From the NCBI GenBank assembly GCA_000277545.1, contig AKXM01000057.1, positions 62,001 through 126,000 on the forward strand: 64,000 nucleotides of DNA, given 5' to 3'. The notes beneath the pieces are model-generated. The model was not told the origin of the DNA and did not search any database. It worked only from the letters and a program-made list of their open reading frames with translations. Position numbers and translations under genes: made by a program. How positions within the stretch are numbered: position 1 is the first letter of the stretch; each line of letters opens with the position of its first letter. Source of the DNA: Enterobacter sp. Ag1 (lineage in GTDB: Bacteria > Pseudomonadota > Gammaproteobacteria > Enterobacterales > Enterobacteriaceae). Shown in pieces: positions 15,060 through 38,164 of the stretch.

Positions 15060-15509
15060 CTATTTATCACGATGTCTCTATTCACGAGATCAATCGATCT
15101 GTTTTTTCAGAGCACCTCCTTTTGAGTAACATACTATTAACAATAAATCATTGGTGAGGTTAATTTTTATTTGGTAGGATTTTTCTTAAGGATGATTCGG
15201 AAAAAGGATCTAAGTGATTTGCTCCGCAGGACTAAATAAGTCATATTGCGTAACGCCTTTATATTAAGAGGCAGCGTGAAATCATGACCTTCATTTATTA
15301 AGAAGACATGAAAGCGGTCGACAGCTTTCTACCTCTTTATAGTCACAACGTCTCGCTCCAGAAATAAACGGGGCGCCATAATGTGGGCGTTTTAATTCAA
15401 CCATTACAGTCGTTTAAATACATCAGCTACTCATCCGTGCCTGTTTATTCCCAATGCAGGAAGGAGCAACATCATCCTGATTATTTAATGGATAAGGATA
15501 TTGCCGTTT
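15060..15509 (+). other. AT-rich untranslated leader before the secretion operon
   Basis: No protein gene is supported in this stretch; short frames (15-19 codons) lack convincing ribosome sites. A hairpin GAAAGC/GCTTTC surrounds 15310-15330. A weak GC hairpin followed by TTTT lies near 15370-15395 and could attenuate. The composition is clearly more AT-rich than the flanking feaB and TolC-like genes. This may be a regulated leader or simply import-derived spacer. Confidence 0.4.
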
Positions 15510-16853
15510 ATGCTTCAGTCTTATTCCCTGCCGGTCGCGATGCTTGCCGTTATTTTTTTCGGCAGCGGCATGCGGGTGAATGCCGCACCAGCGCCGGCCT
15601 GGGCCACAGCACCCGGCATCGCGCAAACGGCAACCCTCACGCTGAACGAAAGTATTCTGTTCGCTCTTGACCGCGATCCTGCCGTTTCTCAGCAGGCAGC
15701 TCAGTTCGGGATTGGTCAGGCGCAGATTGATCAAGCCCGAAGCGCCTGGATGCCGCAGATCTCCCTCAGCGGCAGCACCGGGCATTCGCGTACCACGGAC
15801 TCCAGCGGTTCCCTCAAGAACTCGGCTGCCTACGGGCTTAGCCTGACGCAGCTGGTGTATGACTTTGGGAAAACCAGCAGCAACATTAGTCAGCAGGAGA
15901 GCCAGCGTGAGAGCTATCGCTACCAGCTTATGGCGACGTTGACCGGTGTGGCAGAAAAAACGGCGCAGGCCTATGTCGATGTGAAGCGTAACCAGGCGCT
16001 GATCGCGGCAACGACAGAGAGTATTGCCGCGCTGCAAAACGTCAACACCATGGCAAAGCTGCGGGCGGATGCCGGGCTGAGCTCGAGTTCGGACGTGCTG
16101 CAAACCCAGACTCGCATTGCCGGTATGCGCTCAACGCTTGAACAATATCAGGCGGCACTCCAAAGCGCGAAAGCGAGACTGGCGGTATTAACCGGAATCA
16201 ACGCCGCGCAATATCAGGCCATGCCGGTACGCCTGGCGCTTGAACAGGAACCGCTCGACAACATTGATTACTCGCTGATCCCGAGCGTGCTGGCGGCGGA
16301 GGCCATGCGTGAGTCTTCAGGGTATGCCGTAGAGAAAGCGAAATCGGGCCACTGGCCCACGTTGAGCCTGAAAGGCGGACGCACTCGTTACCAGTCCAAC
16401 AACAGCGCGTACTGGGACGATCAGATTCAGCTGAGCGTGGACGCGCCTATCTATCAGGGCGGGGCGGTCTCCGCCCAGGTCGAGCAGGCTCAGGGAGCCA
16501 GACGTATTGCGGCTTCTCAGGTTGAGCAGGCGAAATTCGACGTGCTGCAAAAAGCGTCCGTGGCAATGGCTGACTGGAACGGGGCCAGAGGCCGTGAAAC
16601 GGCGGGAAAACTCCAGCTGGAAAATGCCCGACGCGCGCGGGAAGTTTATAAAAATGAATATAAATTAAGCAAGCGCAGTCTCAACGACTTATTAAGCGTG
16701 GAGCAGGATGTGTTCCAGGCGGCCTATGCACAAATTAATGCGGACTTCGACGGCTGGCAGGCGGCAGTAAATTACGCTGCCGCCGTTGATAATCTATTGC
16801 CCCTGACAGGCGTCGAGAAAAATGCCGCCTCGAAATTACCGGATTTGAAATAA
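15510..16853 (+). CDS. TolC-family outer-membrane channel of a type I secretion system
   Basis: A 447-residue outer-membrane efflux/secretion protein. The signal peptide covers about residues 1-26 (LPVAMLAVIFFGSG, cleavage near VNA-AP). Two TolC-type repeats follow, starting LTLNESILFALDRDPAVSQQ and, near the middle, LIPSVLAAEAMRESSGYAVE. Coiled coil-forming segments include EKTAQAYVDVKRNQALI and ASVAMADWNGARG. An open frame begins at TTG 15501, but ATG 15510 sits 11 bases after AAGGA (15494-15498) and gives a normal signal. It is first in the operon, 136 bases before the adhesin. It should be the dedicated exit duct for the adhesin together with the ABC and HlyD-like proteins downstream. Similar proteins serve LapA, BapA and SiiE adhesins. 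Confidence 0.88.
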   Translation: MLQSYSLPVAMLAVIFFGSGMRVNAAPAPAWATAPGIAQTATLTLNESILFALDRDPAVSQQAAQFGIGQAQIDQARSAWMPQISLSGSTGHSRTTDSSGSLKNSAAYGLSLTQLVYDFGKTSSNISQQESQRESYRYQLMATLTGVAEKTAQAYVDVKRNQALIAATTESIAALQNVNTMAKLRADAGLSSSSDVLQTQTRIAGMRSTLEQYQAALQSAKARLAVLTGINAAQYQAMPVRLALEQEPLDNIDYSLIPSVLAAEAMRESSGYAVEKAKSGHWPTLSLKGGRTRYQSNNSAYWDDQIQLSVDAPIYQGGAVSAQVEQAQGARRIAASQVEQAKFDVLQKASVAMADWNGARGRETAGKLQLENARRAREVYKNEYKLSKRSLNDLLSVEQDVFQAAYAQINADFDGWQAAVNYAAAVDNLLPLTGVEKNAASKLPDLK

Positions 16854-16989: not shown

Positions 16990-19900
16990 ATGAGTAAGAT
17001 TCTTGAAGTTATTTCCCGCAAGGACGCAGAGAAAACCCTGGTAACAGGCGATGGGAATCTCTCTGTGTCGCTTTCATCCCCCTCTGTCATTCAGATTCAC
17101 GGCAGCGCTAAAGATGTGGCGCACTATCTGCGTCAGGGCAACGATCTGCTGGTATACATGAAAGACGGCAGCGTTATTCGCTGCAATGGCTATTTTGTGG
17201 AGGAAGAAGGGCGGTCTGGGCACCATTCAGAACTGGTGTTTGATGACGGCAAGGCACTGACGCATATCACTTTCGACGAAGCGGGCGCCGCGGTTGGCAC
17301 CCAGGGCACGGCTTTAACGGCAACCTCCGTCCCCATTGAATCCATTGCACCATTCATGGACGGCTCTGCGCTCGGCGATGTGCCGTGGGGCTGGGTTGCT
17401 GGTGCCGTGGCCGGGGGCGCGGGTATCGGGGCGCTGCTGGCACACGGCGGCGGGAAGTCACACACCACCGTTATCGACAATACCAAAGAGGTCGAAAGCG
17501 CCCGGCCAACGTTCACGGTTACCGACAACAAAGGCGACAGCAAAGGGCTGCTGAGCAGCAACGCGGTGACCGATGACGCAACGCCAACCTTCAGCGGCTC
17601 CGGACAGCCGGGAGCCACTATTCAGGTCAAAGACAGCAACGGCAACACCATTGCCAGCACCATGGTCGACAGCAACGGCAACTGGAAAGTGCTGCTGAGC
17701 GAGCAGCCGGACGGGACGCACACCTACAGCGTGGTGCAAATCGACGGCAATAAAGTCACCTCAGCCGGGGATATTACCCTCAATGTTGTTACCGCTCAGG
17801 CTTCACTGACCGTCGCGACGACGGCAGGCGACAATATGATCAACGCGGCGGAGCAGGCAAATGACGTTATCATCAGCGGCAGTTCGCAGGCGCTGGCCAG
17901 CGGCACGGCGTTAACCCTCACCCTGAACGGGAAAACTTACAGCACAACCGTAGGTAGCGACGGCAGCTGGAGCGTAACCGTGCCTGCAGCCGACGCCAAA
18001 AACCTGGCGGACGGGAGCTGGACGGTAGCCGTGAGCGGGAAAGACGCCGCAGGCAACAATGTCACTGCCAGTGAAACGCTGGTGGTGGACACGAAAGCGC
18101 CTGGGCTAACGGTAAATGCCATCGCCGACGACAACATCATTAATGCGGTTGAACACGGCGCGGCGGTGATCATCGGCGGTAAAACTGACGCCGAAGCCGG
18201 GCAGGTGGTCACGCTTAAGCTTAACGGCAAAACCTATACCGCAACGGTAAGCGCAGACGGCAGCTGGAGCATGACCGTGCCGGCGGGTGATGTGCAGACT
18301 ATGGCGGACAATAGCTACACGCTGAACTTCAGCGTCAGCGATAAAGCGGGCAACACCACCACCACTAACGCGTCCCTGCTGGTAGACACCACGCCGCCGG
18401 AAGCCAGCGTCAATACCGTGGCCGGGGATGATATTCTCAGCGTCAGCGAACAGGGTCAGGCACAGATCATTTCTGGCACCAGCCGTGGCGCAGCCCCTGG
18501 AGACCAGGTCACCGTTTCTATTGGAGGAGAAACCTTCCAAACCAGCGTGCAGCAGGACGGCAGCTGGAGCGTGGGCGTACCCAAAGAAATTATTTCATCG
18601 CTGCCGGAAGGCACAAATACCGTTACCGTAACCATCACCGATGCGGCGGGAAACAGTGGCCGAGTAGACCATGACATCACCGTCAGCTCTACGCCGCCAG
18701 CGGTTGCCTTCCATCCGATAAGCCAGGACAACGTGCTGAACGCCATTGAGGCGACTCAGCCGTTAACGCTGAGCGGCACCAGCAATTTACCGGACGGCAG
18801 CACCGTCACCGTCAGGCTGAATAACGTCAATTATACCGCGGACGTTCAGGGCGGTGTCTGGCAGGTTCAGGTACCCGTTGATGATGTCGTCAAGCTGGGC
18901 GATACCACTTACACGCTGAGCGTCAGCGGCACGGACAGTACGGGAAATACGGGGACGGCGAATGCGACGCTGCTGGTTGATACGGCACTGCCTACGGTAG
19001 TGGTGTCGACCTTCGCGGGCGACAACCGCATCAACAACAGCGAAATCGCTAACGACCAGACGCTGAGCGGACGAGTCACCGGCGCGCGTGAAGGCGACAC
19101 GGTTACCCTTAACGTAGGTGGAAAAAACTACACCACCAAAGTACAAAGCGATTTGACCTGGAGCATCACTGTTTCTGCGGGCGACCTGCAGGCGCTGGGC
19201 GATGGCGATGTCTCCGTGGTTGCGTCCGTGACCAACGGTCACGGCAATACAGGCCGGGGCGACAGCAGCTTTAATATCAACGCTCAGCTCCCGGGGCTGC
19301 GCATCAATACCGTGTCCGGGGATGACGTGATTAACGCCATCGAGCAGCATCAGGATTTGACGGTGAGCGGCACCAGCTCACACCTCAACGCCGGGACAAT
19401 TATTACCGTACGCGTGAATGGCGTGGATTACCCGGCGGCCGTAAGCGCCACCGGCACCTGGCAAATAGGGATCCCGGCAAGCGATCTGGCCAGCTGGCCG
19501 AACGGTAAGCTGGACATTAGCGCCAGTTCTGCCGATGAATGGGGCAACCCGGTTGCGGCCTCCCGCCCGGTGGACGTTGACCTGAACTCCGTCGCTATCT
19601 CCATCAACAGCGTGACCAGCGATGACATGCTGAATGCGGTTGAGAAGGCCGCAGATCTCACCCTGGGCGGGAAAACTCAGGGCGTAGAAACCGGGCAAAC
19701 TGTAGTCATTAAATTTGCCGGGCACACCTACACCACAACCGTTAACGAAAACGGTGACTGGACGTATACCGTGCCAGCGGCGGATATGCGCGACATGATT
19801 GATGGCCGCGCAGAAGTGTCCGTGAGCGTTACCAATGCCAGCGGTAATAGCGCCAGCGGCGCAAGGGAAGTGCTTGTCGATACCCAGCCACCGTCAATCA

Positions 19901-22900
19901 CGCTCCACAGCGTCACGGCTGACAATATTCTTAATCATGCCGAAGCGGCACAAGACCTGGTCATCACCGGTACCAGCACCGCACAGCCGGGGCAAACGGT
20001 CACCGTGAACCTCAATAACCAAAGCTACACCGGGCAGGTGCTGGCCGATGGCACCTGGAGCATCACCGTGCCGGTTGCAGACCTGGCTAATCTAACCGAC
20101 GGTAACTGGTCTATCAGCGCCAGCGTCAGCGACATAGCAGGCAACCCGGCCAGTATCAACCACGGCATGCTGGTCGATACCACCGTGCCGGTGGTCACCA
20201 TCAATGTTTTCGCTGGCGATAACATCGTTAACCGCACCGAACATTCCCAGGCGCAGATCTTGTCCGGTAAAGCCACCGGCGCGGCCGCGGGCGACAGCGT
20301 TAAAGTCACCGTTAACGGCGTCGAGTATTCTACGGTGCTGGACGCCGGTGGAAACTGGAGCATTGGCCTGCCTGCAGAGGTGATAGGCGGTCTGGCAGAC
20401 GGCAAATATACCGCAACGGTCGCGGTGACGGATAAAGCAGGCAACGTCGGCGGCAGCTCGCTGGCGTTTGATGTTGCTACCGGACTGCCGCAAATCACCA
20501 TCAATGTCATCGCGCAGGATGACGTGATTAACGCGGCAGAAAAGAGCGCAGAAGTTACCATTAGCGGGACCAGCAACCAGCCGGACGGGACACAAATCAC
20601 CGTGAATCTGAACGGCGTTGACTATGCTGCCGTCGTCAACGGCAGTGCCTGGAGCGTTAAGATCCCGGCGCCGGACGTCGCAAAATTGGGTGAAGCTAAC
20701 TATACCGTTAACGCATCGGTCACGGATGCCAGCGGTAACAGCAATTCTGCCAGTCACAGCGTGCTGGTCGACAGCTCGCTGCCTGTCATCACTATTAATA
20801 CCGTCGCGGGCGACAACATCATCAACCTGGCGGAGGTTAACGCCGGACAGGTGCTCAGCGGCAGCGCGTTCAACGCGGCGGCAGGAGATGAAGTTACCGT
20901 CATTCTTGGCGGTAAAAGCTATACGGTTACCGTCCAGAGCGACCTGAGCTGGAGTTTGCCGCTGAGCAAAGAGATGCTCACCGCGCTGGGCGATGGTGAG
21001 CTTACCGTTCACGCCTCCGTCACCAACGGGCGCGGTAACACCGGCAGCACGGATCATGACATCACGATCGCAGCCCAGCTGCCGGGCCTGCGTATTAATA
21101 CTATCGCGGGCGATGACGTGATCAACCTCGCGGAGCATAGCCAGGATCTCATTGTCAGCGGCACCAGCATTGGCCTCAACGCGGGTAGCGTGGTAACCGT
21201 GACGCTAAACGGCAAAGACTATCTGGCAACGGTAAACGCAGACGGCACCTGGAGCGCCGCCGTACCGGGAAGCGACGTTAGCCGCTGGCCTGACGGCGTG
21301 CTGACGGTAACCGCAAAAGCAGAGGATGGCGCCCAAAATCCGGTCAGCATCGACGGTATCGTGGATGTCGATTTAGCGCCGGTGTCCATCAGCGTGAATA
21401 GCGTCACGGCCGATAACGTGCTGAACGCGGCAGAAAAAGGCAGCGATCTGGTGCTCTCCGGCTTGACCACTAACGTTGAGCCGGGCCAGACCGTCAGCAT
21501 TACCTTCGCCGGGCATCGCTATACCACCGTCGTGAATGACGACGGGAGCTGGCGCTATACCGTACCAGCCGCCGACATGGCAAAACTGAAAGACGGTGAT
21601 GCCCAGGTGACCGTCAGCGTCAGCAACGTGAACGGTAACCCGGCAAACGCCGCCCAGGAATACAGCGTGGACGCCAGCGCGCCAACGCTACTTATCGATC
21701 CGCTGAGCGGGGATAACCTGCTTAACGCCGCAGAAGCGAAGCAGCCGCTGATTGTCAGCGGCAGCAGCAGCGCAGAGCCGGGGCAGGACGTTACGGTGAC
21801 GCTGAATAACGTCAACTATACCGCGACCGTTGGCGCCGATGGCCGCTGGAGCGTCAGCGTTCCGGCCAATGATTTAGCCGCGCTCAAGGACGGCATCATC
21901 ACCGTCAGCGCCTCCGTGGCTGACAAAGCAGGTAACCCTGCAAACGCCGATCGCGGCATGCTGGTTGATATTACCGAGCCGAAGCTGACTATCGATACCG
22001 TGGCAGGCGATGACATCATTAATGCCAGCGAGCATAACCAGGCCCACACCGTGAGCGGCACCAGCACCGGAGCTGCTGCGGGGGATGTGGTTACCGTCGT
22101 GGTGACCAACGGGCAGGGAACGTCATTCACCTTCACCACAACGCTTGATGCCGGGGGTAACTGGAATGTCGGCATCCCGGCGTCGGTCATTAATGGCCTG
22201 GCGGACGGCAGCTACACCATCACCGCCAGCGTCACCGATGCGGCTGGCAACAGCGGCAGCGCCGATCGCGGCCTGAGCGTGAATACCGCGCTGCCGGCGA
22301 TCTCGATTGCCGCCATTGCGGTGGATGACGTCATTAACGCGACGGAAAAGGGGCAGGACCTTGTGCTTTCCGGGACCAGCAACCAGCCCGCTGGCACCCT
22401 CATCACCGTCACCCTGAACGGGATTACTTACCAGGCCGTGGCCGGAACCGACGGCAGCTGGAGCACAACGATTCCGGCTTCTGCCGTCAGCAAGCTGGGT
22501 GAGGCTAATTACACGGTGACCGCGGCGGTAACCGATGCCCACGGTAATAGCAATAGCGACAGCCACAGCGTGCAGGTCGATAGCGCCTTGCCAACCGTTA
22601 CTATCAACAACGTCACCAGCGACAATATTCTCAATATCACGGAAATCGCCAGCGGCCAGACGCTCAGCGGCCTCGTCACCGGGGCGGTAAAAGGTGACGT
22701 TGTCACTATTAATCTCGGCGGCAAGCTGTATCAGGCGACCGTCCAGGACGATTTGAGCTGGAGCCTGTTGGTTTCCAAAGAGATCCTCACCGCGCTGGGC
22801 AACGGCGAGCTGACCATTACTGCTTCTGTGACCAACGGACACGGCAACACCGGCAGCGGCAGTCGCGATATTGTTATCGACGCGAACCTGCCGGGGCTGC

Positions 22901-25900
22901 GCGTGGGCACCGTCGCGGGCGATGACGTGATTAACGCCATCGAGCATAACCAGAACCTGATTATCAACGGCACCAGCACCGGCCTCAGCGCGGGCAGCGC
23001 GGTAACCGTAACGATTAACGGTAAAGACTACGCGGCAACCGTTCGCGCAGACGGCAGCTGGCAGGCCGCCGTACCGAGAGAAGATGTCGCTCGCTGGGCA
23101 GAAGGTGCCGTCACCATTGAGGTGAAGGGCAGCAGCGGCGCGGGAAATGATGTGGCTATCCAGCATCAGGTTACCGTCGATCTCAGCGAAGTGGTGATCG
23201 GCATTAACGCCATAACCGGCGATAATGTACTGAACGCCGCCGAAAAGAGCGCCAACCTCGAACTCTCCGGCACGACGCAAAACGTAGAGCCGGGGCAAAC
23301 CGTCAGCATTACCTTTGCCGGGCACACCTACACCGCCACGGTTCAGGCGGACGGCAGCTGGAAGTACACCGTCCCGGCGGCGGATATGGTGAACCTGAAA
23401 GAGGGTGACACCACCGTTCAGGTGAGCGTGACCAACAAAAATGGCAACAGCACAGAAGCGGCGCAAAACGTCAGCGTCGACAGCCTTGCTCCGACCCTGA
23501 CCGTGGATCCTGTCAGCCAGGATAACCTGCTGAATGCCGCAGAGGCTAAGCAGGATCTGATTATCAGCGGAACCAGTACCGCAGAGGCGGGCCAGACCGT
23601 GACCGTGCAGCTGAACGGCGAAAGCTATCAGGCAACGGTAAAGGCAGACGGAAACTGGAGCCTGACCATACCTGCATCGGACGTCGGCAAACTGGTTGAT
23701 GGTAACGTCACCGTCACCGCAAGCGTGGAAGACCGCGCGGGTAACCCGAGCAGCGCCAGCCGCGACGTGCTGGTTGATAAAACCGTGCCTGAAGTGACCA
23801 TCGGCACCGTCGCTACTGACGACGTGATTAACCAGACCGAACACGGCCAGGCGCAGGTGATCTCCGGTACCAGCACCGGCGCGCAGGCTGGCGATATTGT
23901 TACCGTTACGCTAGGCGGTAAAAGCTACACCGGCGTAGTGGACGCGAGCGGGAACTGGAGCGTCGGCATCCCGCGGGCGGATATCAGCGCGCTGGGCGAT
24001 AACACCTACACCGTGACGGCCTCCATTACCGACAAAGCGGGCAATACCGGCGATGCGATTCATAACGTCAAGGTCGATACCGCGGCACCAACCCTGACCA
24101 TCGACATTATTGCGGGGGACAACATCCTCAATGCCGATGAGAAAACCGGGGATGTCATCATCAGCGGTTCCTCTACCGGGCTGGCGAGCGGGAGCGCCGT
24201 CACCGTACATCTGAACGGTAAAAACTATGCCGCTACCGTGGGCGACGACGGCAAATGGTCCACCACCGTACCAGCAGGCGACGTGGGCAAACTTGGCGAG
24301 GCCTTCTATGAGGTTTCCGTCAGCGCCAGCAACGGCGTGGGCAACGCTGGCAGCCAGAGCAGCACGCTGGAAGTCGCCTCTACGCTGCCGGGCGTTATTA
24401 TCAATGCCGTGGCGATCGACGACATTATCAATGCCTCCGAGCTGGCCGCTGGCCAGACGATCACCGGGCGCGTGACCGGCGTGCAGGCCGGCGCAGACGT
24501 GACCATTAACATCGGCGGCGTCAACTATACCGCGAAGGTGCAAAGCGATCTCACCTGGAGCCTGACCCTTAGCCAGGATGTGCTGACCGCACTGGGCGAC
24601 GGCTCGCTTAAAATTAATGCTTCCGTGACGGACGGCGCGGGTAACACCGGTACCGGCTCTCGCGAAGTCACTATCGACGCGGCCCTGCCGGGCATCCGGA
24701 TTAATACCATTGCGGGCGATGACGTTATCAACGCCATTGAACATGGCCTGAACCTGGTCATCAACGGCACCAGCCGCGGCCTGAGCGAAGGCAGTGCGGT
24801 AACCGTGACCATCAACGGTAAAGACTATGCCGCGACGGTACGCGCCGACGGCAGTTGGCAGACTGTGGTGCCAGGAAACGAAGTCAGCCAGTGGCAGGCC
24901 GGAGATATTACCGTTTCGGCAGGCGGAACCAGCAGCTCAGGCAACCCGGTGTCCATCGATCACACCGTCAATGTTGATCTCAGCGCGGTGGCGATAACCA
25001 TCGGCCAGATTGCCGGGGACGACGTGCTGAACGCTGCCGAGAAGGGCGCTGATTTATTGCTGTCCGGGGCAACACAGAATGTGGAGGCCGGGCAGACCAT
25101 CACCATTACCTTTGCCGGGCACACCTACACTACTCAGGTAGCAAGCGACGGTAGCTGGACATTCACCGTACCGGCTAATGATATGAAAGGGTTGAAAGAC
25201 GGCGAGACTTCTGTGGAAGTTAGCGTCGCTAACGTGAGCGGTAACGGAGCATCGGCCGGGCGTGAAATCAGCGTGGATACCGCAGCCCCGACCCTGCAAA
25301 TCAACACTATCGCCGGGGATGACGTGCTCAATGCAGCCGAGGCCGGGCAGCCGCTGGTCATCAACGGTACCAGCAATGCGGAGCCGGGCCAGACCGTGAC
25401 CGTGAAGCTGAATAATGAAACTTATACCGGTACCGTGCAGGCTGACGGAACGTGGAGCATAACCGTTCCGGCGGAGAAAGCTTCTGCGCTTGGTGACGGC
25501 GTCTATTCCGTTGCAGCCAGCGTCAGCGATGCCGCAGGCAACCACACCTCCGCAAACCATAACTTCAGCGTGGACGTCACCGTGCCGACCATCTCCTTTG
25601 GTGTGGTTGCGGGCGACGATGTGATTAACCTCGCCGAGCACGGGCAGGCACAAATTATCTCCGGTTCCAGCAGCGGCGCTGCGGCAGGGGACAAAATTAC
25701 CGTGACCATTGGCTCCAACAGCTGGACCACCACCGTGGACGCTGCGGGCAACTGGAGCATTGGCGTCCCGGCCAGCGTCGTCAGCCAGCTGGCGGACGGC
25801 ACCGTCACTATTCACGCCAGCCTGACGGATGCAGCAGGTAATACGGGGATCGGTAGCCGTGACGTTGTGGTCAATACCGGTTTACCGTCGCTCAGCTTCA

Positions 25901-26580
25901 ATCCGTTAAGCGGTGACAACGTGCTTAACGCTAGTGAAAAAGGGGAAACATTAACCCTGAGCGGGACCAGCGCTAATCTGGCCCCGGGCACTGCGGTTAT
26001 TGTCACGCTGAACGGTAAAAATTATACCGCCACCACCGACGCCAGCGGTAACTGGAGTGTTGACGTTCAGCCGGGCGATCTGGTCGGGCTGGGCGAAGCC
26101 AACTATACGCTGACCGCTACCGCAACAAGCGCTATCGGTAACAGTGCCAGCACTCACGCCAGTTTGTTGGTCGACACCGCCGCGCCGGGCGTCACGATTA
26201 ATCCAGTGACCGCAGACAACGTCCTTAACGCGTCTGAAATCGCAGCAGGCCAGACTCTGAGCGGAAAAGTCAGCAATGCGGCAGCCGGCGACACAGTCAC
26301 GATCAATCTGGGGGGGAAAACCTACACCGCGACGGTGCAGAGCGATCTGAGCTGGAGCCTCGACCTGCCTGCTAGCGTGCTTACCGCCCTGGGGAACGGA
26401 AAACTCACCGCCACGGCCTCGGTCACTAACGGGCACGGCAACAGCGGCACGGCAGAACGTGAATTTACCATTGATGCCAGCCTGCCGGGTCTTCGGATCC
26501 ACACCGTGGCGGGGGACGATGTGATCAACGCCATTGAACACAATCAGAACCTGATTGTTAGGGAAGCGCTAGCGGTATGA
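16990..26580 (+). pseudogene. Giant Bap/SiiE-like adhesin, N-terminal part (frame broken at 3' end)
   Basis: 3196 codons forming the first 59% of a huge type I-secreted adhesin. Residues about 1-135 form a BapA-prefix-like domain (MSKILEVISRKDAEKTLVTG). A Gly/Ala-rich linker follows, WVAGAVAGGAGIGALLAHGG (about 139-158), probably the part that stays in the exporter. One different Ig-like domain comes next, then from about residue 271 some thirty Ig-like repeats of near 100 residues with the pattern 'AGDDVINAAE...GTS...VTVTLNGKTYTATV..DGSWSVTVP'. There is no Cys and the proteins are Asp-rich. ATG 16990 has AAGGAG upstream. The frame ends abnormally inside a repeat: after LIV it reads REALAV and stops. 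One extra base near 26561 would read S-G-S-A-S-G-M-S-A-G and continue in the next frame for 5410 residues in all. Without that base this product lacks the C-terminal export signal. It could be a true mutation or a sequence error. Confidence 0.85.
19297..26493 (+). repeat. Higher-order six-domain repeat array in the adhesin gene
   Basis: The Ig-like domains fall into six types in fixed order. A: LRINTVAGDDVINAIEH; B: SVTADNVLNAAEK...TFAGHTYT; C: AEPGQTVTV; D: EHxQAQIISG...GAAAGD; E: EKxxDLVISGTSNQ...LGEANYT; F: EIAxGQTLSG...SDLSWSL. Type A begins at 19297, 21088, 22897, 24694 and 26491, so the period is 1791, 1809, 1797 and 1797 bp. A partial unit (C-D-E-F) precedes the first A, and A-B-C-D-E follows the last. 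The 18-bp longer second unit is explained by a six-residue insertion in its D domain (TNGQGT region near 22105). Confidence 0.85.
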
Positions 26581-29500
26581 GCGCAGGCAGTACCGTGACC
26601 GTCACCATCAACGGCAAAGGCTACCTGGCAACGGTGAGCGCCAGCGGAACCTGGTCGGCCGCCGTACCTGCGGAAGATGTCAGCCAGTGGGCGGCAGGCA
26701 ATGTCACTGTTACCGCCGCGGGCAGCAGTAGCGCGGGGAACCCGATCTCTATCGATCGTATGGTGAATGTCGACCTCAGTCCGGTTGCGGTCAGCGTTGA
26801 CGCTATCACAGCAGATAACGTGCTTAACGCGGCTGAGAAAGGGGCCGATCTGGTTCTTTCAGGTAAGACCCAGAACGTTGAGGCCGGGCAAAACGTCACC
26901 ATTCTTTTCGGCGGGCACACCTATACGGCGCAGGTTGCGGCCGACGGGAGCTGGAGTTACACCGTGCCAGCAGGCGATATGGCTGGGCTGAAGGATGGCG
27001 ATGCGTCAGTAAAAGCTACCGTGACTAACGTGAACGGCAACGGAGCCAGCACAGAGCGTGAGTTCAGCGTGGATGCCACGCCGCCGGGGCTTGCCATTGA
27101 CCCCATTGCCACGGACAACGTTATCAATGCCGCAGAAGCAGGCGCGGGCGTCGTCGTCACCGGAACGTCAAACGCGGAAGCCGGACAGACGGTCACGCTG
27201 ACCCTGGACGGAAAAACCTATACTGGCGTAGTGAAAGCGGACGGCACCTGGAGCGTAACGCTTGATGCTACAGCCCTGGGGAGCCTGGCAGATAACAACT
27301 ATCAGCTTAGTGCGAGCGTCAGCGATGCGGCGGGTAACGGATCAACCAGCAGCAAAACGATAACGCTAGACACCACCGCGCCGACGATCGGCTTTAACGT
27401 CGTGGCGGGTGACGACATCATCAACTTTGAAGAGCACGCTCAGGCGCAGATTATCTCTGGCTCCAGCAGCGGCGCAGCGGCAGGGAATAAAATTGTTATT
27501 ACCCTCAACGGCACTCAGTATGTCACCCAGATAGATGCCAACGGCAACTGGAGCATAGGCGTCCCGGCTTCGGCGATTTCATCGCTGAAAAACGGCACGG
27601 CAACGATTACCGCCACGCTCACCGACAGCGCCGGCAACGAGGGCACTAACACCCATACGGTTGAGGTTAACGCCGTCCGTGTCGGGCTAACCATCGGGAC
27701 TATTAGCGATGACGACGTGATTAACGCCGCAGAATCTCAGCAGGATTTGGTTATCGGCGGAGGTAGCGCTGAACTTGCCGTGGGCACTCAGGTGACCGTT
27801 ACGCTGAACGGCGTACAGTACCACACCACTGTTCAACAAGGCGGCGGCTGGAGCGTTACCGTGCCGGCGAATCAGGTACAAAACCTGGTGCACGGTAACG
27901 GCTACACGGTCGTGGCATCGGCGACGGACGGCGCAAATAACGCCACTTCGGCAAGCCATAACATCACCATAGACACCGCAGCGCCGGTCATCACCCTCGC
28001 CGATATCTCCGGTGACAACGTGATCAACGCGGCGGAACAGCAGCTGCCGTTAACCATTCGCGGTACCAGCAGCGCGGAAGCCGGGCAAAAAGTGACCGTT
28101 AAGCTGGGAAGCGGGAGCTACGAAGCTACGGTGCAGGCGGACGGCTCCTGGAGCGTGACCGTTGCCGCGGACGACCTGGCGAAGCTTACCGACGGTGACT
28201 TCAACGTTAGCGCCTCCGTTCAGGATAAGGCAGGAAACCCGGGCAGCGCGGATCGTACTTTGACGGTGGACACCACCCCGCCAACCATCACCTTTAACAA
28301 GGTGGCGGGGGACGACATCATTAACAGCGCCGAGCAGCAGGCAGGCCAGGTCATTAGCGGCACCACTGACGCTCAGCCTGGGCAGACGGTAACCATTACC
28401 TTCAATAATCACTCTTATAAGGCGGTGGTGAGCGACACCGGAACATGGTCTGTGACCGTCCCGGCACAGGACTTCCTGGGCGCGACAGACGGCAGTTACC
28501 AGATTTCCGCCAGCGTTAGCGATAAAGCCGGGAACAGCAGCAGTGCGAATAAGCAGGTGACCCTGAACGGCGAGGTGCCGACCATCAGCGTCAATGACTT
28601 CGCGCAGGACAACATTGTCAGCGCCGCAGAACACGGCACGCCGCTGGTGATAAGCGGCGTGACCAACGCGCCTGCGGGCCAGACGGTGACTATCACCCTG
28701 AATAATCAGAGCTATACCACCACGGTCAACGGCGACGGCACCTGGAGCTACACCCTCGGCAGCGGTGCGGTTTCCGCGCTGGTCGATGGCGGCTCGTATG
28801 TGATTCATGCCAGCGTCAGCAACAGCATCGGTAACAGTGCGGGAGCAGATCGCACCGTCACGGTGGACACCACACCGCCGCAGATGACCATTACCATTGA
28901 CGCTCTGCAAAACGACACCGGGCTGAGCAAGACTGACTTTATTACCGCCGATAACAAGGTGGTGGTGAAAGGTTCCCTGAGCGCGGCACTCGGCAATAAC
29001 GAAAAGGCGCAGATAAGCCTCGACGGGGGATCCAGCTGGATTGACCTTGTGGTTAACGGCAAATCCTGGAGCTATGCCGATGGGCGCACGCTGCCGGACG
29101 GTATCGTGACCTATAACGTACGCGTCATCGACAATGCCGGCAACGTGGGCTCGACGGCAACGCAAAACGTAACTATTGATACTGTTGCGCCGGATGCCAG
29201 TAAAACCATTACCGTTGAGGCCATTACCCAGGATACGGGTCTCGATGCGCACGACTTTATTACCAGTGACAATACGCTGACCATTAGCGGCAAGTTAGGG
29301 GGAACGCTGGCGGCCGGTGAACATGCCCAGATCAGTATTGATGGCGGAAAAACCTGGGTTGACGTGAGTATCAGCGGCACCACATGGAGCTACATCGATA
29401 GCCGCACGCTGGCCGACGGGGATTATCTCTATCAACTGCGCGTGATTGATGATGCGGGCAATATCGGGGCAACCACCAGCCAGTTGGTCACCGTTGATAC

Positions 29501-32500
29501 CGTGGCACCGGATGCGAGCAAATCCGTCACCATTGACCGCATTGCCGACGATACAGGGCTGAGTAATAGCGACTTTGTCACCAGCGACACCTCGCTGACT
29601 ATCCACGGTTCTCTGGGCGCTTCACTGCTGGACGGCGAATATGTGCAGATAAGCATGGACGGAGGCCTCACCTGGAAAACGGTCACCACGGTAGGCACAA
29701 CCTGGTACTTTACCGACGGGCGAACGTTAACTGACGGCACGTATCAATACTATGTTCGCGTGGTCGACGCTGCGGGTAATGTCGGGCAGAGCGCTTCTCA
29801 GACGGTAACGGTAGACACCACGCCGCCGGATGCGGCTATCACCGTTACCGTGGACAGCATCACCACCGACAGCGGCTTCAGCAACAGCGACTTTATCACC
29901 AACGATAACACGCTGACGCTGAACGGCTCACTTGGCGCGGTGCTTGGCAAAAATGAATATGTTCAGGTGAGCTTCGACGGCGGAGCCAACTGGGTTAACG
30001 CCACGTCCGTCAACGGGACAAGCTGGAGCTATACCGATGGCCGCCAGCTTGCGGACGGTAACCACACCTGGCAGGTTCGCGTTGTCGACCTTGCTGGAAA
30101 CGTGGGAGCAACCACCAGCCAGACGGTAACGGTAGATACCGTCGCGCCAACCTACGGCATCACCATCGACAGTATTTCGGATGATACCGGGCAGAGCGCC
30201 AGCGACTTTATCACTATGGATACCACGCTCACGCTGAACGGCACCCTGGGCCACGCCCTTGCCAGCGACGAGCGTGTGCAAATCAGCCTGGACGGCGGTC
30301 AGAGCTGGGTGGATGCCGTGGTGAACGGCACGGCGTGGCATTACGTGGATGGACGTACATTGCCGGACGGCGACCATCTTTATCAGGTGCGGATTATCGA
30401 TCAGGCCGGAAACGTGGGTTCAACCGCAGCCCAGGTTGTCACCGTTGATACCGTAGCGCCGGATACCGTCGGCACTATCGTCAGCTATACGGATAATGAC
30501 GGCGAGCGTACCGGTAATTTCGACAGCAGCTACTCCACCGACGATACCTCGCCGGTGCTGAACGGTACGCTGAACCATGCGCTGGCCGACGGTGAAATTG
30601 CCCAGATCTTCCGCGATGGCGTGCTGGTAGGCAAGGTGACCATTACCGGCGGTACAAGCTGGACCTTTGCGGATTCTGGCCTGCTGGACGGAAATTACCA
30701 CTATGTTCTGCGCGTGACGGACAAAGCGGGGAACTACACCGAGTCGAACGACTTCACGCTGACGGTCGATACCTCGGTGCCGACGACAATTGCCCACGTA
30801 GATGCGGTATCGACTTCAGATACCACGCCGATTCTCACCGGGGATGTCAGTGCCCAACTGATGAATGGTGAATTCGTGGTCGTGACCGTGAATGGCAAAA
30901 CGTACAGCTCCGAGCGCGGAGGTCCGGTGGTGGTCGATCCTTCATCCAACCGCTGGTATCTGCAAATTCCTGACAGCGACCTGCTGGGGCTGAACAGCTA
31001 CAACGTCACCGCCCAAGTGAAGAGCAGCGCGGGTAACGGCAACAACACCGGGATCCAGACAGGATCGCTGGTCGTGCATGCCGAAACGGCCAATGACACC
31101 AGCTGGGCGAACACGGCGGGCAATGCGAACAACAGCGCCAGCACGTTAATGCTCAACAATAACGGCCTGTGGACGCTGGTGACCAATACCTCGGTATACA
31201 ACGGCACGGATCTGAACAGTTACACCCAGACGTCGCTGCCTAATACGCGTGCGAATACCGTCAGCTACACCGCGCTGGACTTTGACCGTAACGGCACCGT
31301 TGATATATACGGCACGGAAACCACTTACGGCAACGCGGTACAGACCATGTGGATCGCCAACGCCAATGGCACTTATACCACCAGTACCCAGGCCAACGGC
31401 ACCACGATCTGGTACGGCGGCGTTATCGCCTATGACAAAAACGGCGATGGTTATGTCGACCTGGCCTACGGTGACGCCGGGGGCGACTCCAGAACCTACC
31501 TGATTAACAACAAGGGTAGCATGGTGGCCGACGGGACCAATGGCAACGGCGGCTTGACCGGCGTCAGCTACCGCGAACTGTCCGGCGTGGACATCAACAA
31601 TGACGGTAACATCGATATTGTTCAGCATACCAACAGCAACGGGACCAGTGCGCTGAGTGTGATTTCTAACAACGGCAGCAAGCTGACGACCCTGCAGTCT
31701 ATTGCCAACGTGTTTGTCGATAACGCGGCGAACACGACGACCGCTGCCTCCATGACGTGGGCCGACTTCAACGGCGATGGCTACCTGGATCTCTATATCG
31801 CCACCGGTCGGAGCGTGACCTCTGCGACGGTGAATTACAGCGGGAAGATTTTCTACAACGATGGCAATGGTCAGTTGAACAGCAACTACACCAGCGTGGA
31901 GTCTACGTCGACCGCGGCTAACGCAGGCTATATGTCCGTGGCCGTGGACTGGGACGGTGATGGCGACATGGATATTGTTAAGTTTTCCACCTACGGCACC
32001 AGTCAGACAGCGCGTCTGTTTAGCAACGACGGCACCGGCAAGAACTGGACCGAAAGCCAGCTGGCAAAAGGACTGGTTAACGTCACGGGCGTTGCGGTGG
32101 CGGACTACGACTGGAACGGTACTCAGGATCTGCTGGTGTCTCAGCAAAACGGGAAAGTGGTGTTGGTGGCCAACACCAACACCATCGCCCCGGGTACCGC
32201 GATGCATCTGCGCATTGTCGACAGTGAAGGGATCAACGTCTTCTACGGCAATACCGTCCGGCTGTATGACTCTACCGGGAAGCTGGTTTCGACGCAGATT
32301 ATCAACGCCCAGTCGGGCATTGGGGCGAACGACGCGTCGGCGCTGGTGAGCTTCTACGGCCTCAACCCGAATGAAACCTACCATGCCGAGCTGGTCAGAG
32401 CGATTAACGGCGTCACCAGCAATGTGACCTGGAATGGGCTAACCGCCGGAGACGGGAAAGAAAGCTATGCCCTGACGGCGGAGGCCGCCACCGGCGTTCA

Positions 32501-33221
32501 CGGCGGCACGCTGAACGGCACTGGCTATAACGATACCTTTATCGCCGAGCAGGGAACCTACGTCTATAACGGCGGCGGCGGCTGGGAAACTTCATCCGAT
32601 CACCAGACGTGGAGCGCGACGGGCGGGATGGATGTGGTTGACTTCCGTAACTCCGGGGTAGGCATCACCGTTGATCTGGGCAAAACCGGGGCGCAAAACA
32701 CCGGCTTTAACACGGCAACCTTCACCAACATCGAAGGGATCGTCGGCTCCAGCCATGACGACGTGATCACCGGCAATAGCGGGAACAACACCTTCGAAGG
32801 CGGCGGCGGCAACGACACCTTCAACATCGGCAGCGGCGGCCACGATACGTTGCTCTACAAGCTGTTGAACAGTTCGGATGCCACCGGCGGCAACGGCCAT
32901 GATGTGGTGAACGGCTTCAGCGTGGGAACCTGGGAAGGTACGGCGGACAGCGACCGTATTGACCTTCGTGAGCTGCTGCAGGGCAGCGGCTACGCCGGGG
33001 ACGCATCGGCGCATTACATCAATGGCGTTGCGCAGCTGGGGGCCGGGGCGGGCAATATCGGGGACTACATCAAAGTGGTGCAGAACGGCAGCAGCACTGA
33101 GATTCAAATTGACCGCGACGGTAAGGGCGGCGTCTTCGACCCAACCACGGTAGTCACGCTCAACGGGGTACAAACCGATCTCGCCACGCTGCTGGCTAAC
33201 CACCAACTGTTAGTTATCTAG
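26577..33221 (+). pseudogene. Giant Bap/SiiE-like adhesin, C-terminal part with export signal
   Basis: 2214 codons continuing the adhesin in the +1 frame. The frame opens in mid-repeat (SAGSTVTVTINGKGYLATVS), with no ribosome site of its own; its ATG overlaps the previous stop (ATGA). It adds seven more 'DDVINAAE' repeats (to about residue 768). Five repeats of another Ig type follow, each about 105 residues and marked by DTGxSxxDFIT (nt 28.88-30.47 kb), then two shorter ones. Six FG-GAP/VCBS-like blades carry Ca-binding Asp loops (DFDRNGTVD, YDKNGDGYVD, DINNDGNID, DFNGDGYLD, DWDGDGDMD, DYDWNGTQD; residues about 1560-1845). RTX-type GGXGXD-like turns lie near 2055-2085 (GGGGNDTF), then a type I C-terminal target domain ending NHQLLVI. 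Large Ca-dependent adhesins of this plan mediate biofilm or host-cell attachment. Confidence 0.85.
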
Positions 33222-33361: not shown

Positions 33362-35542
33362 ATGACTTCAACGAATACAAGCTATGAACCCTGGCTGCAG
33401 GCCATGCTGGCCGTCGCGCGCCACTATCGGCTGGATTTCTCGGAAGAGCACGTCCGCGTGGTGGTTAACCAGGAAAACCAAAGCCCGCAGCAGCTGGTGC
33501 TGGAAGATATGGCCCGCCAGCTTGGTTTAGCGATGCGTCGCGCCCCGGCGGACGTCTCGCTTATCGACCCGTGGCGCTTGCCGCTGGTGGCCGAGCTTGA
33601 GGGGGGCCAAATAGCGGTGGTTACCCATATGGATAATCACGGGCAACTAAGCCTGCAGCTTAGCGGCGATGGCGGTCTGGAGACGGTGATCGCTCGGGAT
33701 GTGCTGGCCAAAAGGCTAAAGAGCCTGGTTGTGCTGCGCCCGCTGAATTCAATTCCCGATGCACGCGTCGATGATTACGTGAAGCCCTATCAGAAAAACT
33801 GGTTCTGGACGCTGGCGCTGAAAGACTGGAAACGCTACGGCGATATCATGCTGGTGGCGATGGCGGCCAACGTGCTGGCGCTGGCCGGGATGATCTTTTC
33901 CATGCAGGTGTATGACCGCGTGGTGCCCTCGCAGTCGGTGCCCACTTTGTGGGTGCTGTTTGGCGGCGTCATGCTGGCTATCCTCTTTGAATTCACCATG
34001 CGTATGCTGCGCGTGCATATTGCCGATGTGGTCGGCAAACGGGCCGACCTGCGTATCTCCGACAGGGTTTTTGCCAGGGCGTTACGCATCAAAAACAGCG
34101 CCCGGCCAAAATCTACCGGCTCCTTTATCTCGCAAATTCGCGAGCTGGAGTCGGTGCGCGAGCTGATTACCTCCACCACCATCAGCACCGTATCGGATAT
34201 CCCGTTCTTCCTGCTGTTTGTTTTTATTCTCTGGCTAATAGGCGGCCCGCTGGTGTTCGTTGTGCTGCTGGCGATCCCGCTGCTGCTGATCCCCGGTTTA
34301 CTGGTGCAGCGCCCGCTGGCGCACCTTTCGAATGAGGGGATGCGCGAGTCGGCCATTCGCAATGCCACGCTGGTAGAAGCCGTGCAGTCCATCGAAGACA
34401 TTAAACTGCTGCGCGCCGAACAGCGGTTCCAGAACCAGTGGAACAACACCAACGACGTTGCCGCGGCGGTCGGGATGAAACAGCGCTGGCTGACCAGCCT
34501 GCTCATGACCTGGACGCAGGAAGTGCAGTCCATTGTTTATGCCGTGGTGCTGCTCGTCGGCTGTTACCTGGTGATTAACGGCGACATGACCACCGGCGCC
34601 CTGGTGGGGACTTCCATTCTGGCCTCACGCACCATCGCGCCGCTGGCGCAGATTTCCGGCGTGCTTTCGCGCTGGCAGCAGGCGAAGGTGGCGCGCAAAG
34701 GGCTGGACGACCTGATGCAGCGCCCGCTGGACGATCCTGAACAGGGCAAGAAAGTGCATAAAGCCCACCTGCAGGGGAACTACCAGCTCAACTACGCGGC
34801 GTTTTATTACGACGAAGAAGAGAAGGTCAACGATTTGGACATTGCCAGCCTGACGATCCGCGCCGGGGAAAAAATTGCGGTGCTCGGGCGAAACGGTTCG
34901 GGTAAAAGCACGCTACTTCAGCTTTTGGCGGGGATGCAAACGCCTCAGCACGGCCAGATTTTGCTGGACGACACCAGTCTCGGGCAAATCGACACTGCCG
35001 ATTTGAGACGCGACATGAATCTGCTCAGCCAGCAGGCGCGGCTCTTCTTCGGCTCAATACGTGACAACCTCACCATGGGGCGCCCGTTAGCCACGGACGA
35101 AGAAATCCACCGGGCGCTGGCGCTAAGCGGGGCGCTGGAATTTGTGCAAAAACAGAAAAATGGCCTCAACTACACGATCAGCGAAGGCGGTAGTGGGCTA
35201 TCGGGCGGCCAGCGGCAGGCACTTTTGCTGGCCAGAACGCTGATCCTGCAGCCGCAAATCTTATTACTGGATGAACCTACAGCGTGGCTGGATGAAGTCA
35301 GCGAGCAGCAGCTTATCCAGCAGCTTGGCCCGTGGCTCGGCAACCGCACGCTGGTGGTGGCCACGCATCGTATCCCAATTTTGCAGTTGGTTAACCGCAT
35401 CATCGTGCTGGATAACGGCCGCATCGTAATGGACGGCCCAAGGGACCAAATCTTGCAGCAGCACGGTCTTATGGAAAAAAAAGCTGCCCCTCGCAGAACC
35501 GCGACCTTAAAACCGACAGGTGACACGGAGGTTCGGGCATGA
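33362..35542 (+). CDS. Type I secretion ABC transporter (permease/ATPase) for the adhesin
   Basis: A 726-residue LapB/SiiF/BapC-like exporter. Residues about 1-135 form a C39-like domain without any Cys, so it is a non-cleaving substrate-binding domain. The transmembrane domain (about 155-440) has clear helices (IMLVAMAANVLALAGMIFSM, LWVLFGGVMLAILFEF, IPFFLLFVFILWLIGG, IVYAVVLLVGCYLVI). The nucleotide-binding domain has Walker A LGRNGSGKST, signature LSGGQRQ and Walker B ILLLDEPTAWLD, then the switch His in VVATHR. AGGATG precedes ATG 33362. Its TGA overlaps the next gene's ATG by 4 bases. It pushes the unfolded adhesin, C-terminus first, through the HlyD-like and TolC-like partners. Confidence 0.93.
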   Translation: MTSTNTSYEPWLQAMLAVARHYRLDFSEEHVRVVVNQENQSPQQLVLEDMARQLGLAMRRAPADVSLIDPWRLPLVAELEGGQIAVVTHMDNHGQLSLQLSGDGGLETVIARDVLAKRLKSLVVLRPLNSIPDARVDDYVKPYQKNWFWTLALKDWKRYGDIMLVAMAANVLALAGMIFSMQVYDRVVPSQSVPTLWVLFGGVMLAILFEFTMRMLRVHIADVVGKRADLRISDRVFARALRIKNSARPKSTGSFISQIRELESVRELITSTTISTVSDIPFFLLFVFILWLIGGPLVFVVLLAIPLLLIPGLLVQRPLAHLSNEGMRESAIRNATLVEAVQSIEDIKLLRAEQRFQNQWNNTNDVAAAVGMKQRWLTSLLMTWTQEVQSIVYAVVLLVGCYLVINGDMTTGALVGTSILASRTIAPLAQISGVLSRWQQAKVARKGLDDLMQRPLDDPEQGKKVHKAHLQGNYQLNYAAFYYDEEEKVNDLDIASLTIRAGEKIAVLGRNGSGKSTLLQLLAGMQTPQHGQILLDDTSLGQIDTADLRRDMNLLSQQARLFFGSIRDNLTMGRPLATDEEIHRALALSGALEFVQKQKNGLNYTISEGGSGLSGGQRQALLLARTLILQPQILLLDEPTAWLDEVSEQQLIQQLGPWLGNRTLVVATHRIPILQLVNRIIVLDNGRIVMDGPRDQILQQHGLMEKKAAPRRTATLKPTGDTEVRA

Positions 35543-36714
35543 ACGACATCACGCGTTATAACAGCCGACTGAAAGAGCCGGCGCTTCCACGAGCAAGCCT
35601 GGTGGCGTGGGCACTTGGACTGATGCTGCTCGCATTTGTGTTGTGGGCAAACTTTTTCTCTCTGGACGAAGTGACCACCGGGTCTGGCAAAGTCGTGCCG
35701 TCCTCTCGCGAGCAGGTTATTCAGTCCCTGGAAGGCGGCATCCTCTACAAACTGGACGTTCGGGAGGGGGATATTGTAGAGAAGGGCCAGGTTCTCGCGC
35801 AGCTCGATCGCACCAAAACCGAGTCCGGCGTGCAGGAAAGTGAATCCAGGCTACATGCCGCGATGGCTACCGCCGCACGACTGAAGGCTGAAGTGAGCGG
35901 CACGCCGTTGGTTTTTCCCGAGATGCTCCCCGGAGAGAGCGAACTTGTTCGCCAGGAAACCGCGCTTTATAACTCGCGCCGGAGCAGTCTTGAAAAAGGG
36001 GTTGCCGGATTGCGGGAAGCCATTTCGCTGGTTCAGCGCGAGCTGGCGATGACGCAGCCGCTGGTTAAACAGGGGGCGGCCAGCAGCGTGGAGGTCCTGC
36101 GCCTGCAGAGACAAAAAAACGAGCTGGAAAACAAAATTACCGAAATGCAGAACCAGTATTACGTGCGCGCGCGCGAAGAGCTGGCGAAAACTAACGAAGA
36201 AATTGAAACCCAGCGCTCGGTGATGCGCGGGCGGGAGGATTCGTTAACCCGGCTCAAATTTACCGCGCCGGTCAGGGCGATAGTGAAGGGCATCGAGGTC
36301 ACAACGGTGGGCGGCGTCATCCCGCCAAACGGAAAGCTCATGACGTTGGTTCCGCTCGACGATCAAATGCTGATTGAGGCAAAAATTTCACCTCGTGACG
36401 TGGCGTTTATTCATCCCGGCCAAAAGGCACTGGTGAAAATCACCGCCTATGACTACTCGATTTATGGCGGATTAAAGGGCGTGGTGACCACTATTTCACC
36501 GGATACGATTCAGGATGAGGTCAAACGTGATGTTTACTACTATCGGGTTTACATCCGCACCGATGTCAGCCAACTGACAAACAGGGACGGCAAAACGTTT
36601 CCGATATTTCCGGGGATGATTGCCACCGTGGATATCAAAACCGGTAGCAAATCGGTACTCGATTACCTGCTGAAACCACTGAACAAAGCAAAGGAAGCGC
36701 TCAGAGAACGATAA
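35539..36714 (+). CDS. HlyD-family membrane fusion protein of the adhesin exporter
   Basis: A 391-residue adaptor linking the ABC exporter to the TolC-like channel. A short cytoplasmic start is followed by one membrane helix (about residues 21-42, LVAWALGLMLLAFVLWANFF). Then come a biotinyl-lipoyl-like half (VIQSLEGGILYKLDVREGDIVEKGQ), a periplasmic coiled coil (about 90-225) and the second lipoyl half plus beta-barrel (FTAPVRAIVKGIEV, PRDVAFIHPGQKALVKIT), ending in the HlyD C-terminal signature region (GMIATVDIKTGSKSVLDYLLKPL). It overlaps the ABC gene by ATGA. It is last in the operon and convergent with the next gene. Confidence 0.93.
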   Translation: MNDITRYNSRLKEPALPRASLVAWALGLMLLAFVLWANFFSLDEVTTGSGKVVPSSREQVIQSLEGGILYKLDVREGDIVEKGQVLAQLDRTKTESGVQESESRLHAAMATAARLKAEVSGTPLVFPEMLPGESELVRQETALYNSRRSSLEKGVAGLREAISLVQRELAMTQPLVKQGAASSVEVLRLQRQKNELENKITEMQNQYYVRAREELAKTNEEIETQRSVMRGREDSLTRLKFTAPVRAIVKGIEVTTVGGVIPPNGKLMTLVPLDDQMLIEAKISPRDVAFIHPGQKALVKITAYDYSIYGGLKGVVTTISPDTIQDEVKRDVYYYRVYIRTDVSQLTNRDGKTFPIFPGMIATVDIKTGSKSVLDYLLKPLNKAKEALRER

Positions 36715-37600: not shown

Positions 37601-38164
37601 ATTGTTTTTTCTCGGTATTCAGCTATGGCGCAAATGCTCCATAAAACGACTGCTAAAGGCAGAGATAAAATGCACGTTATACGTGATTTTTATTTAGTGA
37701 TTGCAAGTTGATATCGTTTTTGAGTATATCACTGTTTATTTTAAAGTTAAAAATATGATTCTGTTTTTTCTTATTTTTATTTTTATTAACCAAAAATGCT
37801 TATCGTTCTCATTTTTTTGATTTTGAAATTATGTGGAAATAATATCTCCGGGCAGAGGAAAACAGTGTGAGGTCATGTACAAAAAACATGCAGCGAGCGT
37901 TACGCCTGGATTGCTGTCTTTTCCGTCAGGTTTGCAGCCGATGTAGCAGTTAAAGTTGCGGCGACTTCGGTAAAATGTTTAAGGATTATGCCAACGAAGT
38001 ACTCACTTTTGTTTCTGCTTCATCTTTAATTTTCTATTTTTTTTAGGGTTTAAAATGCTCTCCGTTCAGAGCGGGGGATAATACCTTAATTAAGATTTTG
38101 TTCATGGTGCTTCTCGCCATTTTATTATAATGTCCTATGCCTTATTTATGATATGGATATTGCT
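37601..38164. other. AT-rich intergenic region between divergent genes
   Basis: No gene is supported here. It is much more AT-rich than the window average, with long A/T tracts near 37735-37800 and 38030-38060, as in H-NS-silenced imported DNA. A -10-like TATAAT lies at 38126-38131, 33 bases before the caspase-like gene's start, without a clear -35. Promoters for both flanking genes probably lie here. Confidence 0.5.

What the first reader, a model, noticed from the sequence alone, without database searches (positions are those of the whole stretch)
26551..26600. Giant adhesin split by a one-base frame break inside an Ig repeat
Seen: ORF 1 ends LIV-REALAV-stop, ORF 2 begins SAGSTVTVTINGKGYLATVS. 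Sister repeats at the same place read NLIINGTSTGLSAGSAVTVT. One added base near 26561 makes AGC GGA AGC GCT AGC GGT ATG, giving SGSASGMSAG. The full span 16990-33221 is 16232 bases; with one base added it is 5411 codons, an exact multiple of three. Split, part 1 (retention domain) has no export signal and part 2 (export signal) has no retention domain, so cell-surface display should be lost. It is either an assembly/read error, a real null mutation, or an on/off switch. The site is not a homopolymer, which argues against simple slippage.
Basis: seen in the sequence. Interest (0 to 1): 0.8.

Follow-up and report, generated by a model that had tools for sequence, protein, structure and literature searches.

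The report
Giant adhesin gene broken by frameshift
In this Cedecea-group bacterium the gene for a giant surface-attachment protein is cut in two by a one-base frame break that its close relatives lack, most likely a recent loss-of-function mutation of a kind already known for such genes.

Summary
ORF 16990-26580 (3196 aa) and ORF 26577-33221 (2214 aa) are two pieces of one BapA/SiiE-like giant adhesin; their stop and start overlap as ATGA. In 7 of 7 sister genomes of the genus it is one frame of 5409-5441 aa, so the split is private to this genome among those held. The secretion genes beside it are intact. There is no second lesion, and amino-acid change on this lineage equals the sister's (47:114 against 45:104), so the break is recent or false. 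In 377 kb of coding DNA compared with the nearest sister it is the only lone one-base frame break in the middle of a gene, which argues against poor polishing. In a family survey 4 of 26 other scorable copies are also broken, each elsewhere. At the site there is no homopolymer, slippery heptamer or long repeat; a perfect 8-bp hairpin lies a few bases away and may have promoted the change. Best reading: a real, recent null allele (0.76); consensus error is the main rival (0.18). A switch has no positive support. The kind is known: siiE is a frameshift pseudogene in Salmonella Typhi.

The parts
16990..26580 (+). Piece 1 of the giant adhesin (3196 aa): BapA-type N-terminal prefix and about 30 bacterial Ig-like repeats; ends out of frame inside an Ig repeat
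   Evidence: BapA_N 67.6 bits, cutoff 27; Big_13; Ca_tandemer 30 stretches; SiiEA model 258 bits, below its cutoff 425
26577..33221 (+). Piece 2 of the giant adhesin (2214 aa): Ig-like repeats, FG-GAP repeats, C-terminal type I secretion target domain
   Evidence: T1SS_VCA0849 31.5 bits, cutoff 17.6
26551..26600 (+). Frame break; no homopolymer at the gap, no XXXYYYZ heptamer in 26540-26577, longest exact direct repeat within the adhesin that touches 26541-26600 is 12 bases
26577..26580 (+). ATGA stop/start overlap; the Met is an internal Met in 7 of 7 sisters, so the restart is probably fortuitous
26540..26558 (.). Perfect 8-bp inverted repeat with a 3-base loop just upstream of the break; candidate cause of the local mutation
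15501..16853 (+). TolC-family outer membrane channel of the type I secretion system (open throughout, as in G007)
   Evidence: TIGR01844 333 bits, cutoff 225
33362..35542 (+). Type I secretion ABC permease/ATPase, LssB type (open throughout, as in G007)
   Evidence: TIGR03375 832 bits, cutoff 693
35539..36714 (+). HlyD-family periplasmic adaptor (open throughout, as in G007)
   Evidence: TIGR01843 339 bits, cutoff 209

Best explanation
The window carries a recent, lineage-private loss-of-function allele of a BapA/SiiE-like giant adhesin secreted by its own type I system. A one-base length change inside one Ig repeat stops translation after about 3196 of about 5410 residues. Shown: one gene in 7 of 7 sisters, a single one-base difference in length from the nearest sister, no further lesion, open secretion genes. 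Inferred: piece 1, lacking the C-terminal secretion signal, stays in the cell; piece 2 could be made at low level by restart at the ATGA overlap and, having the signal but no N-terminal prefix, would be released and not held on the surface; display of the adhesin is lost. A small perfect hairpin beside the site may have provoked the replication error (inferred).
For: 7 of 7 sister genomes have one frame of 5409-5441 aa. Only one indel separates the gene from that of sister G007. Of 320 coding-like ORFs (376,716 bases) compared between G007 and this genome on contigs C57 and C34, the adhesin is the only one with a lone one-base indel between 10% and 90% of its length; at the 95% upper bound on that rate 0.13 such errors are expected in the adhesin. 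No homopolymer at the gap and no exact repeat within the adhesin of more than 12 bases touching 26541-26600, so neither the usual long-read error nor repeat collapse is indicated. Loss recurs: of 29 copies with both ends on one contig 22 are in one frame; 2 of the other 7 hold long runs of N at the frame change and were set aside; 5 of 27 are broken, the window among them, by frame change or stop. siiE is reported as a frame-shift pseudogene in S. Typhi and as inactivated in other lineages. Only 0.95% of the gene lies within 5 bases of a hairpin as strict as the one beside the break.
Against: No reads and no second strain of the same species could be examined, so a consensus error remains possible. 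Nonsynonymous:synonymous change on this lineage equals the sister's (47:114 against 45:104, p 0.90), as expected also if the gene were whole in the living strain. Three differences from G007 lie within 13 bases next to the break, two of them absent from all 7 sisters, which could mean one complex mutation or a local consensus fault. The hairpin criterion was set after seeing the hairpin, and hairpins also disturb sequencing (general knowledge).
Confidence: 0.76

Rival explanations
1. Sequencing or assembly error: the living strain has a whole gene and the break is only in the consensus.
For: Single one-base change, no other lesion, selection unchanged; draft assembly of 64 contigs; clustered differences and a hairpin at the site.
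Against: No other lone interior one-base frame break in 360,483 further coding bases; not a homopolymer; no long repeat at the site; 4 of 26 other scorable copies are also broken, three of them in 2-contig assemblies.
Confidence: 0.18
2. Reversible on/off switch (phase variation) that happens to be off in the sequenced colony.
For: Large surface adhesin, a class in which phase variation is common (general knowledge); the only run of 7 or more identical bases in the gene, G7 at 26310-26316, lies about 250 bases upstream.
Against: The break is not at the G7 run, and G007 has a G7 run at the matching place (place matched by arithmetic); no simple repeat at the break; 7 of 7 sisters whole.
Confidence: 0.03
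3. Functional split: two separately translated proteins joined by ATGA translational coupling, or a programmed frameshift restoring one protein.
For: ATGA overlap and an AGGG motif 13 bases before the ATG; the 7 sisters show none of AGGA, GGAG, AGGG, GAGG in the 20 bases before that Met codon.
Against: No sister has two proteins here; the Met is an ordinary internal residue in 7 of 7 sisters; no XXXYYYZ heptamer in 26540-26577; the break falls inside an Ig repeat; ORF1 by contrast has AAGGAG 7 bases before its ATG.
Confidence: 0.03

Closest known systems
siiE frame-shift pseudogene of Salmonella Typhi and other inactivated siiE alleles
   Same: Giant Ig-repeat adhesin of a type I secretion system, interrupted in one lineage while relatives keep it whole (passages of PMC6272769, PMC6540521, PMC8011750)
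   Different: Other genus; the N-terminus scores below the curated SiiEA cutoff; FG-GAP repeats near the C-terminus (not compared with SiiE here); no sign of host adaptation was looked for
BapA / SiiE family of type I-secreted giant adhesins
   Same: BapA_N prefix, Ig-like calcium-stabilised repeats, T1SS_VCA0849 C-terminus, TolC, ABC and HlyD genes alongside
   Different: 258 bits against a cutoff of 425 for the SiiEA model; gene order TolC - adhesin - ABC - HlyD, not compared here with the Salmonella loci

Membership tests
BapA/SiiE-like type I-secreted giant adhesin | BapA-type N-terminal prefix | tested here: met
   PF22783 67.6 bits (cutoff 27) and NF033677 67.2 bits (cutoff 35)
BapA/SiiE-like type I-secreted giant adhesin | Long array of bacterial Ig repeats | tested here: met
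   Big_13 20 and 13 stretches, Ca_tandemer 30 and 13 stretches in pieces 1 and 2
BapA/SiiE-like type I-secreted giant adhesin | C-terminal type I secretion target | tested here: met
   TIGR03661 31.5 bits (cutoff 17.6) in piece 2
BapA/SiiE-like type I-secreted giant adhesin | TolC, ABC and HlyD genes beside the adhesin | tested here: met
   open throughout against G007
SiiE proper | Score above the curated SiiEA cutoff | tested here: not met
   NF047714 258 bits, cutoff 425
SiiE proper | SiiA/SiiB accessory proteins | not tested
   No search made for them
Recent pseudogene | Whole orthologue in close relatives | tested here: met
   7 of 7 sisters; no N inside those frames
Recent pseudogene | Relaxed selection since the break | tested here: not met
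   47:114 against 45:104, p 0.90; expected if very recent, and equally if the break is false
Recent pseudogene | Break confirmed by reads or sister strains | not testable with these tools
   No reads held; one genome per species
Phase-variable gene | Simple repeat or invertible element at the break | tested here: not met
   No homopolymer at the gap, longest exact direct repeat within the adhesin touching 26541-26600 is 12 bases; invertible elements were looked for only by a local inverted-repeat scan of 26480-26660
Programmed -1 frameshift | XXXYYYZ heptamer upstream of the stop | tested here: not met
   none in 26540-26577

The most novel reading that the evidence does not exclude
The hairpin beside the break is a mutational hot spot that repeatedly knocks the adhesin frame out and back, so populations of this bacterium hold displayed and secreted-only forms of the adhesin: piece 2, restarted at the ATGA overlap, is exported without its N-terminal part and released as a soluble fragment.
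Probability: 0.03. Interest if true: 0.55.

Novelty: new member of a known kind. Interest (0 to 1): 0.2.

Why it matters
With 4 others among 26 further scorable family copies, it is another independent case of a type I-secreted giant adhesin put out of action by one small lesion; here the exporter genes stay open. That suggests these very large genes are often dispensable in nature. For annotation, the two ORFs should be filed as one interrupted gene and not as two adhesins.

Tried and rejected
Programmed frameshifting: no slippery heptamer. Two conserved proteins: none in sisters. Slippage in a homopolymer: run length 1 at the gap; the only run of 7 lies about 250 bases upstream and has a G7 counterpart in G007. 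Repeat collapse: within the adhesin the longest exact direct repeat touching 26541-26600 is 12 bases, touching 26400-26750 17 bases. Old pseudogene: no other lesion, no excess amino-acid change. Internal promoter or terminator in 26300-26800: 0 and 0 found. Same break elsewhere: G125 is also split, but by eye in another Ig repeat type and register. Apparent splits in G151 and G186 C29 were dropped because long runs of N lie at the frame change. 13 of 42 N-end places had no C-end match on the same contig and were not scored. Of the 22 copies counted whole, only the 4 genus members were checked for N inside the frame (0); the other 18 rest on the open-frame column.

In the 59 named loci L036-L094, which hold 10 kb or less upstream of the C-domain, 46 are open from the C-domain to the locus start and 13 have an upstream stop. 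The 13 were not scored as whole or broken: one (L066) has the N-terminal prefix inside the same frame; one (L091) has a stop inside the C-domain match but also scattered N there; the rest were not followed. E. coli genomes gave no match to 26001-27200 in 'near' mode. Papers: of 301 papers the 15 listed have 0 mentions of Cedecea; one search lists two Cedecea neteri papers, seen in the listing only; one search found 0 papers with 'giant adhesin', 'frameshift' and 'Ig-like' together.

Full report
The window is G000:C57:62001-126000 of a 4.75 Mb, 64-contig genome. The 7 other genomes of its genus in the search tool include four whose contig lengths equal those of Cedecea davisae DSM 4568, Cedecea neteri NBRC 105707, 'Enterobacter sp. 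Cy-643' (G007) and 'Enterobacteriaceae bacterium RIT693', so it is a Cedecea-group enterobacterium; its species was not identified.

The finding is confirmed. ORF1 (16990-26580, 3196 aa) and ORF2 (26577-33221, 2214 aa) overlap as ATGA. ORF1 has a BapA-type prefix and Ig repeats; ORF2 has Ig repeats, FG-GAP repeats and a type I secretion target. A TolC-family channel lies upstream and an ABC permease and a HlyD adaptor downstream; all three align to the sister without gaps and without an early stop. This is a BapA/SiiE-like giant adhesin locus, though not SiiE proper by the curated SiiEA cutoff.

All 7 of 7 sister genomes of the genus have the adhesin as a single frame of 5409-5441 aa, with no N inside the frame. 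The nearest sister, G007, differs from the window gene by 491 substitutions and one one-base indel over 16.2 kb. The split is thus private to this genome among 8.

Is it an error? I compared contigs C57 and C34 of this genome (467,214 bases) with 540 kb of G007. Of 434 G007 ORFs of at least 120 aa, 356 had a match; 11 of these were set aside for low coverage or identity and 25 as not coding-like, leaving 320 (376,716 bases). The adhesin is the only one with a lone one-base indel between 10% and 90% of its length. Results that blur this: a 195-aa ORF carries two 2-base insertions at 16-20% of its length, a 223-aa ORF a stop at 35%, four ORFs carry +1/-1 pairs that cancel and may be alignment effects, and others show indels or stops in the first 10% or stops in the last 2%, which start or end choice may explain. 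In the other direction (321 ORFs of this genome, 376,284 bases, against G007) the adhesin piece is flagged at its very end; also flagged in the interior are a stop at 42% of a FeaR-type regulator, a stop at 15% of a 417-aa ORF, a 164-aa ORF with three indels and three cancelling pairs. Taking zero comparable events in the other 360,483 bases, the 95% upper bound predicts 0.13 such breaks in the adhesin. There is no homopolymer at the gap and no exact direct repeat within the adhesin above 12 bases touching 26541-26600. These speak against, but do not exclude, a consensus fault.

Age. On differences polarised by G002, G003 and G005, leaving out the last 20 codons of piece 1 and the first 10 of piece 2, the window lineage has 47 nonsynonymous and 114 synonymous changes, G007 45 and 104 (p 0.90). 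By piece: piece 1 38:65 against 25:48 (p 0.75), piece 2 9:49 against 20:56 (p 0.14). Unresolved differences (31 nonsynonymous, 147 synonymous) were left out. The outgroups are only 78-80% identical to the window over piece 2, so polarising is weaker there. There is no sign of decay: the break is recent, or false.

Cause. A perfect 8-bp inverted repeat with a 3-base loop lies at 26540-26558, present also in G007, G003 and G006 (3 of 7 sisters) but not at this stem length in the other 4. Of the gene, 0.95% lies within 5 bases of such a hairpin; the criterion was set after seeing it. Three differences from G007 fall at 26564-26576 beside the break, expected 0.6 in 20 bases, p 0.02, the stretch again chosen after the fact; at two of the three the window differs from all 7 sisters, at the third it agrees with one. 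A hairpin-provoked replication error that changed several bases at once would fit; this is inference.

Recurrence. In 392 family genomes the two ends of the adhesin were sought apart. Of 42 N-end places, 29 had the C-end on the same contig: 22 in one frame, 7 not. Two of the 7 (G151, G186 C29) hold long runs of N at the frame change and were set aside. The remaining 5 of 27 are broken: the window; G125 by a mid-gene frame change; G239 by a frame change in the N-domain; G306 by a stop in the N-domain; G359 by a stop in the C-domain (the frames of G239 and G306 by arithmetic from these calls). They break at different places, so they look like independent losses and no shared programmed site is seen. 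Some may themselves be errors, but G125, G239 and G359 are 2-contig assemblies.

Consequence (inferred from SiiE work; passages of PMC6272769 seen): the C-terminal part carries the secretion signal and the N-terminal part governs retention. Piece 1 should not be exported; piece 2, if made, should be released. ORF1 has AAGGAG 7 bases before its ATG, while ORF2 has only AGGG 13 bases before its ATG, where the 7 sisters show no such motif; any restart is probably weak.

Verdict: an ordinary, probably real and recent null allele of a known kind. siiE is reported as a frame-shift pseudogene in S. Typhi (PMC6272769), inactivated in S. Typhimurium ST313 and African invasive S. Enteritidis (PMC6540521) and in a passerine S. 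Typhimurium lineage (PMC8011750); passages seen.

Noticed in passing
12057-12971 (-) and sister G007: A FeaR-type regulator (NF007243, 402 bits) is whole here next to an aldehyde dehydrogenase gene, but its homologue in sister G007 has an in-frame stop after residue 128.
   Followed up: partly
31578-33218 and G004: The adhesin's C-terminal domain is 99% identical at protein level to that of G004, although piece 1 is only 86% identical; five other sisters are 75-80% over piece 2. This suggests exchange of the C-terminal part between species.
   Followed up: no
26310-26316: The only homopolymer of 7 or more in the adhesin, a G7 run, in frame and with a G7 counterpart in G007; a possible slippage site but not the cause of the break.
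   Followed up: partly
64826-99861 of contig C57 (window about 2826-37861): The block around the adhesin is 96.5% identical to G007 while the other aligned blocks longer than 5 kb are 92.7-95.2%.
   Followed up: no
36749-37600 (-) and 38153-38782 (+): Two ORFs beside the secretion genes match no Pfam or NCBIfam family at E 0.001.
   Followed up: no
L091 (Trabulsiella odontotermitis), about 4220: A stop falls inside the C-domain match of a related adhesin; scattered N in the same stretch leave it open whether this is real.
   Followed up: partly
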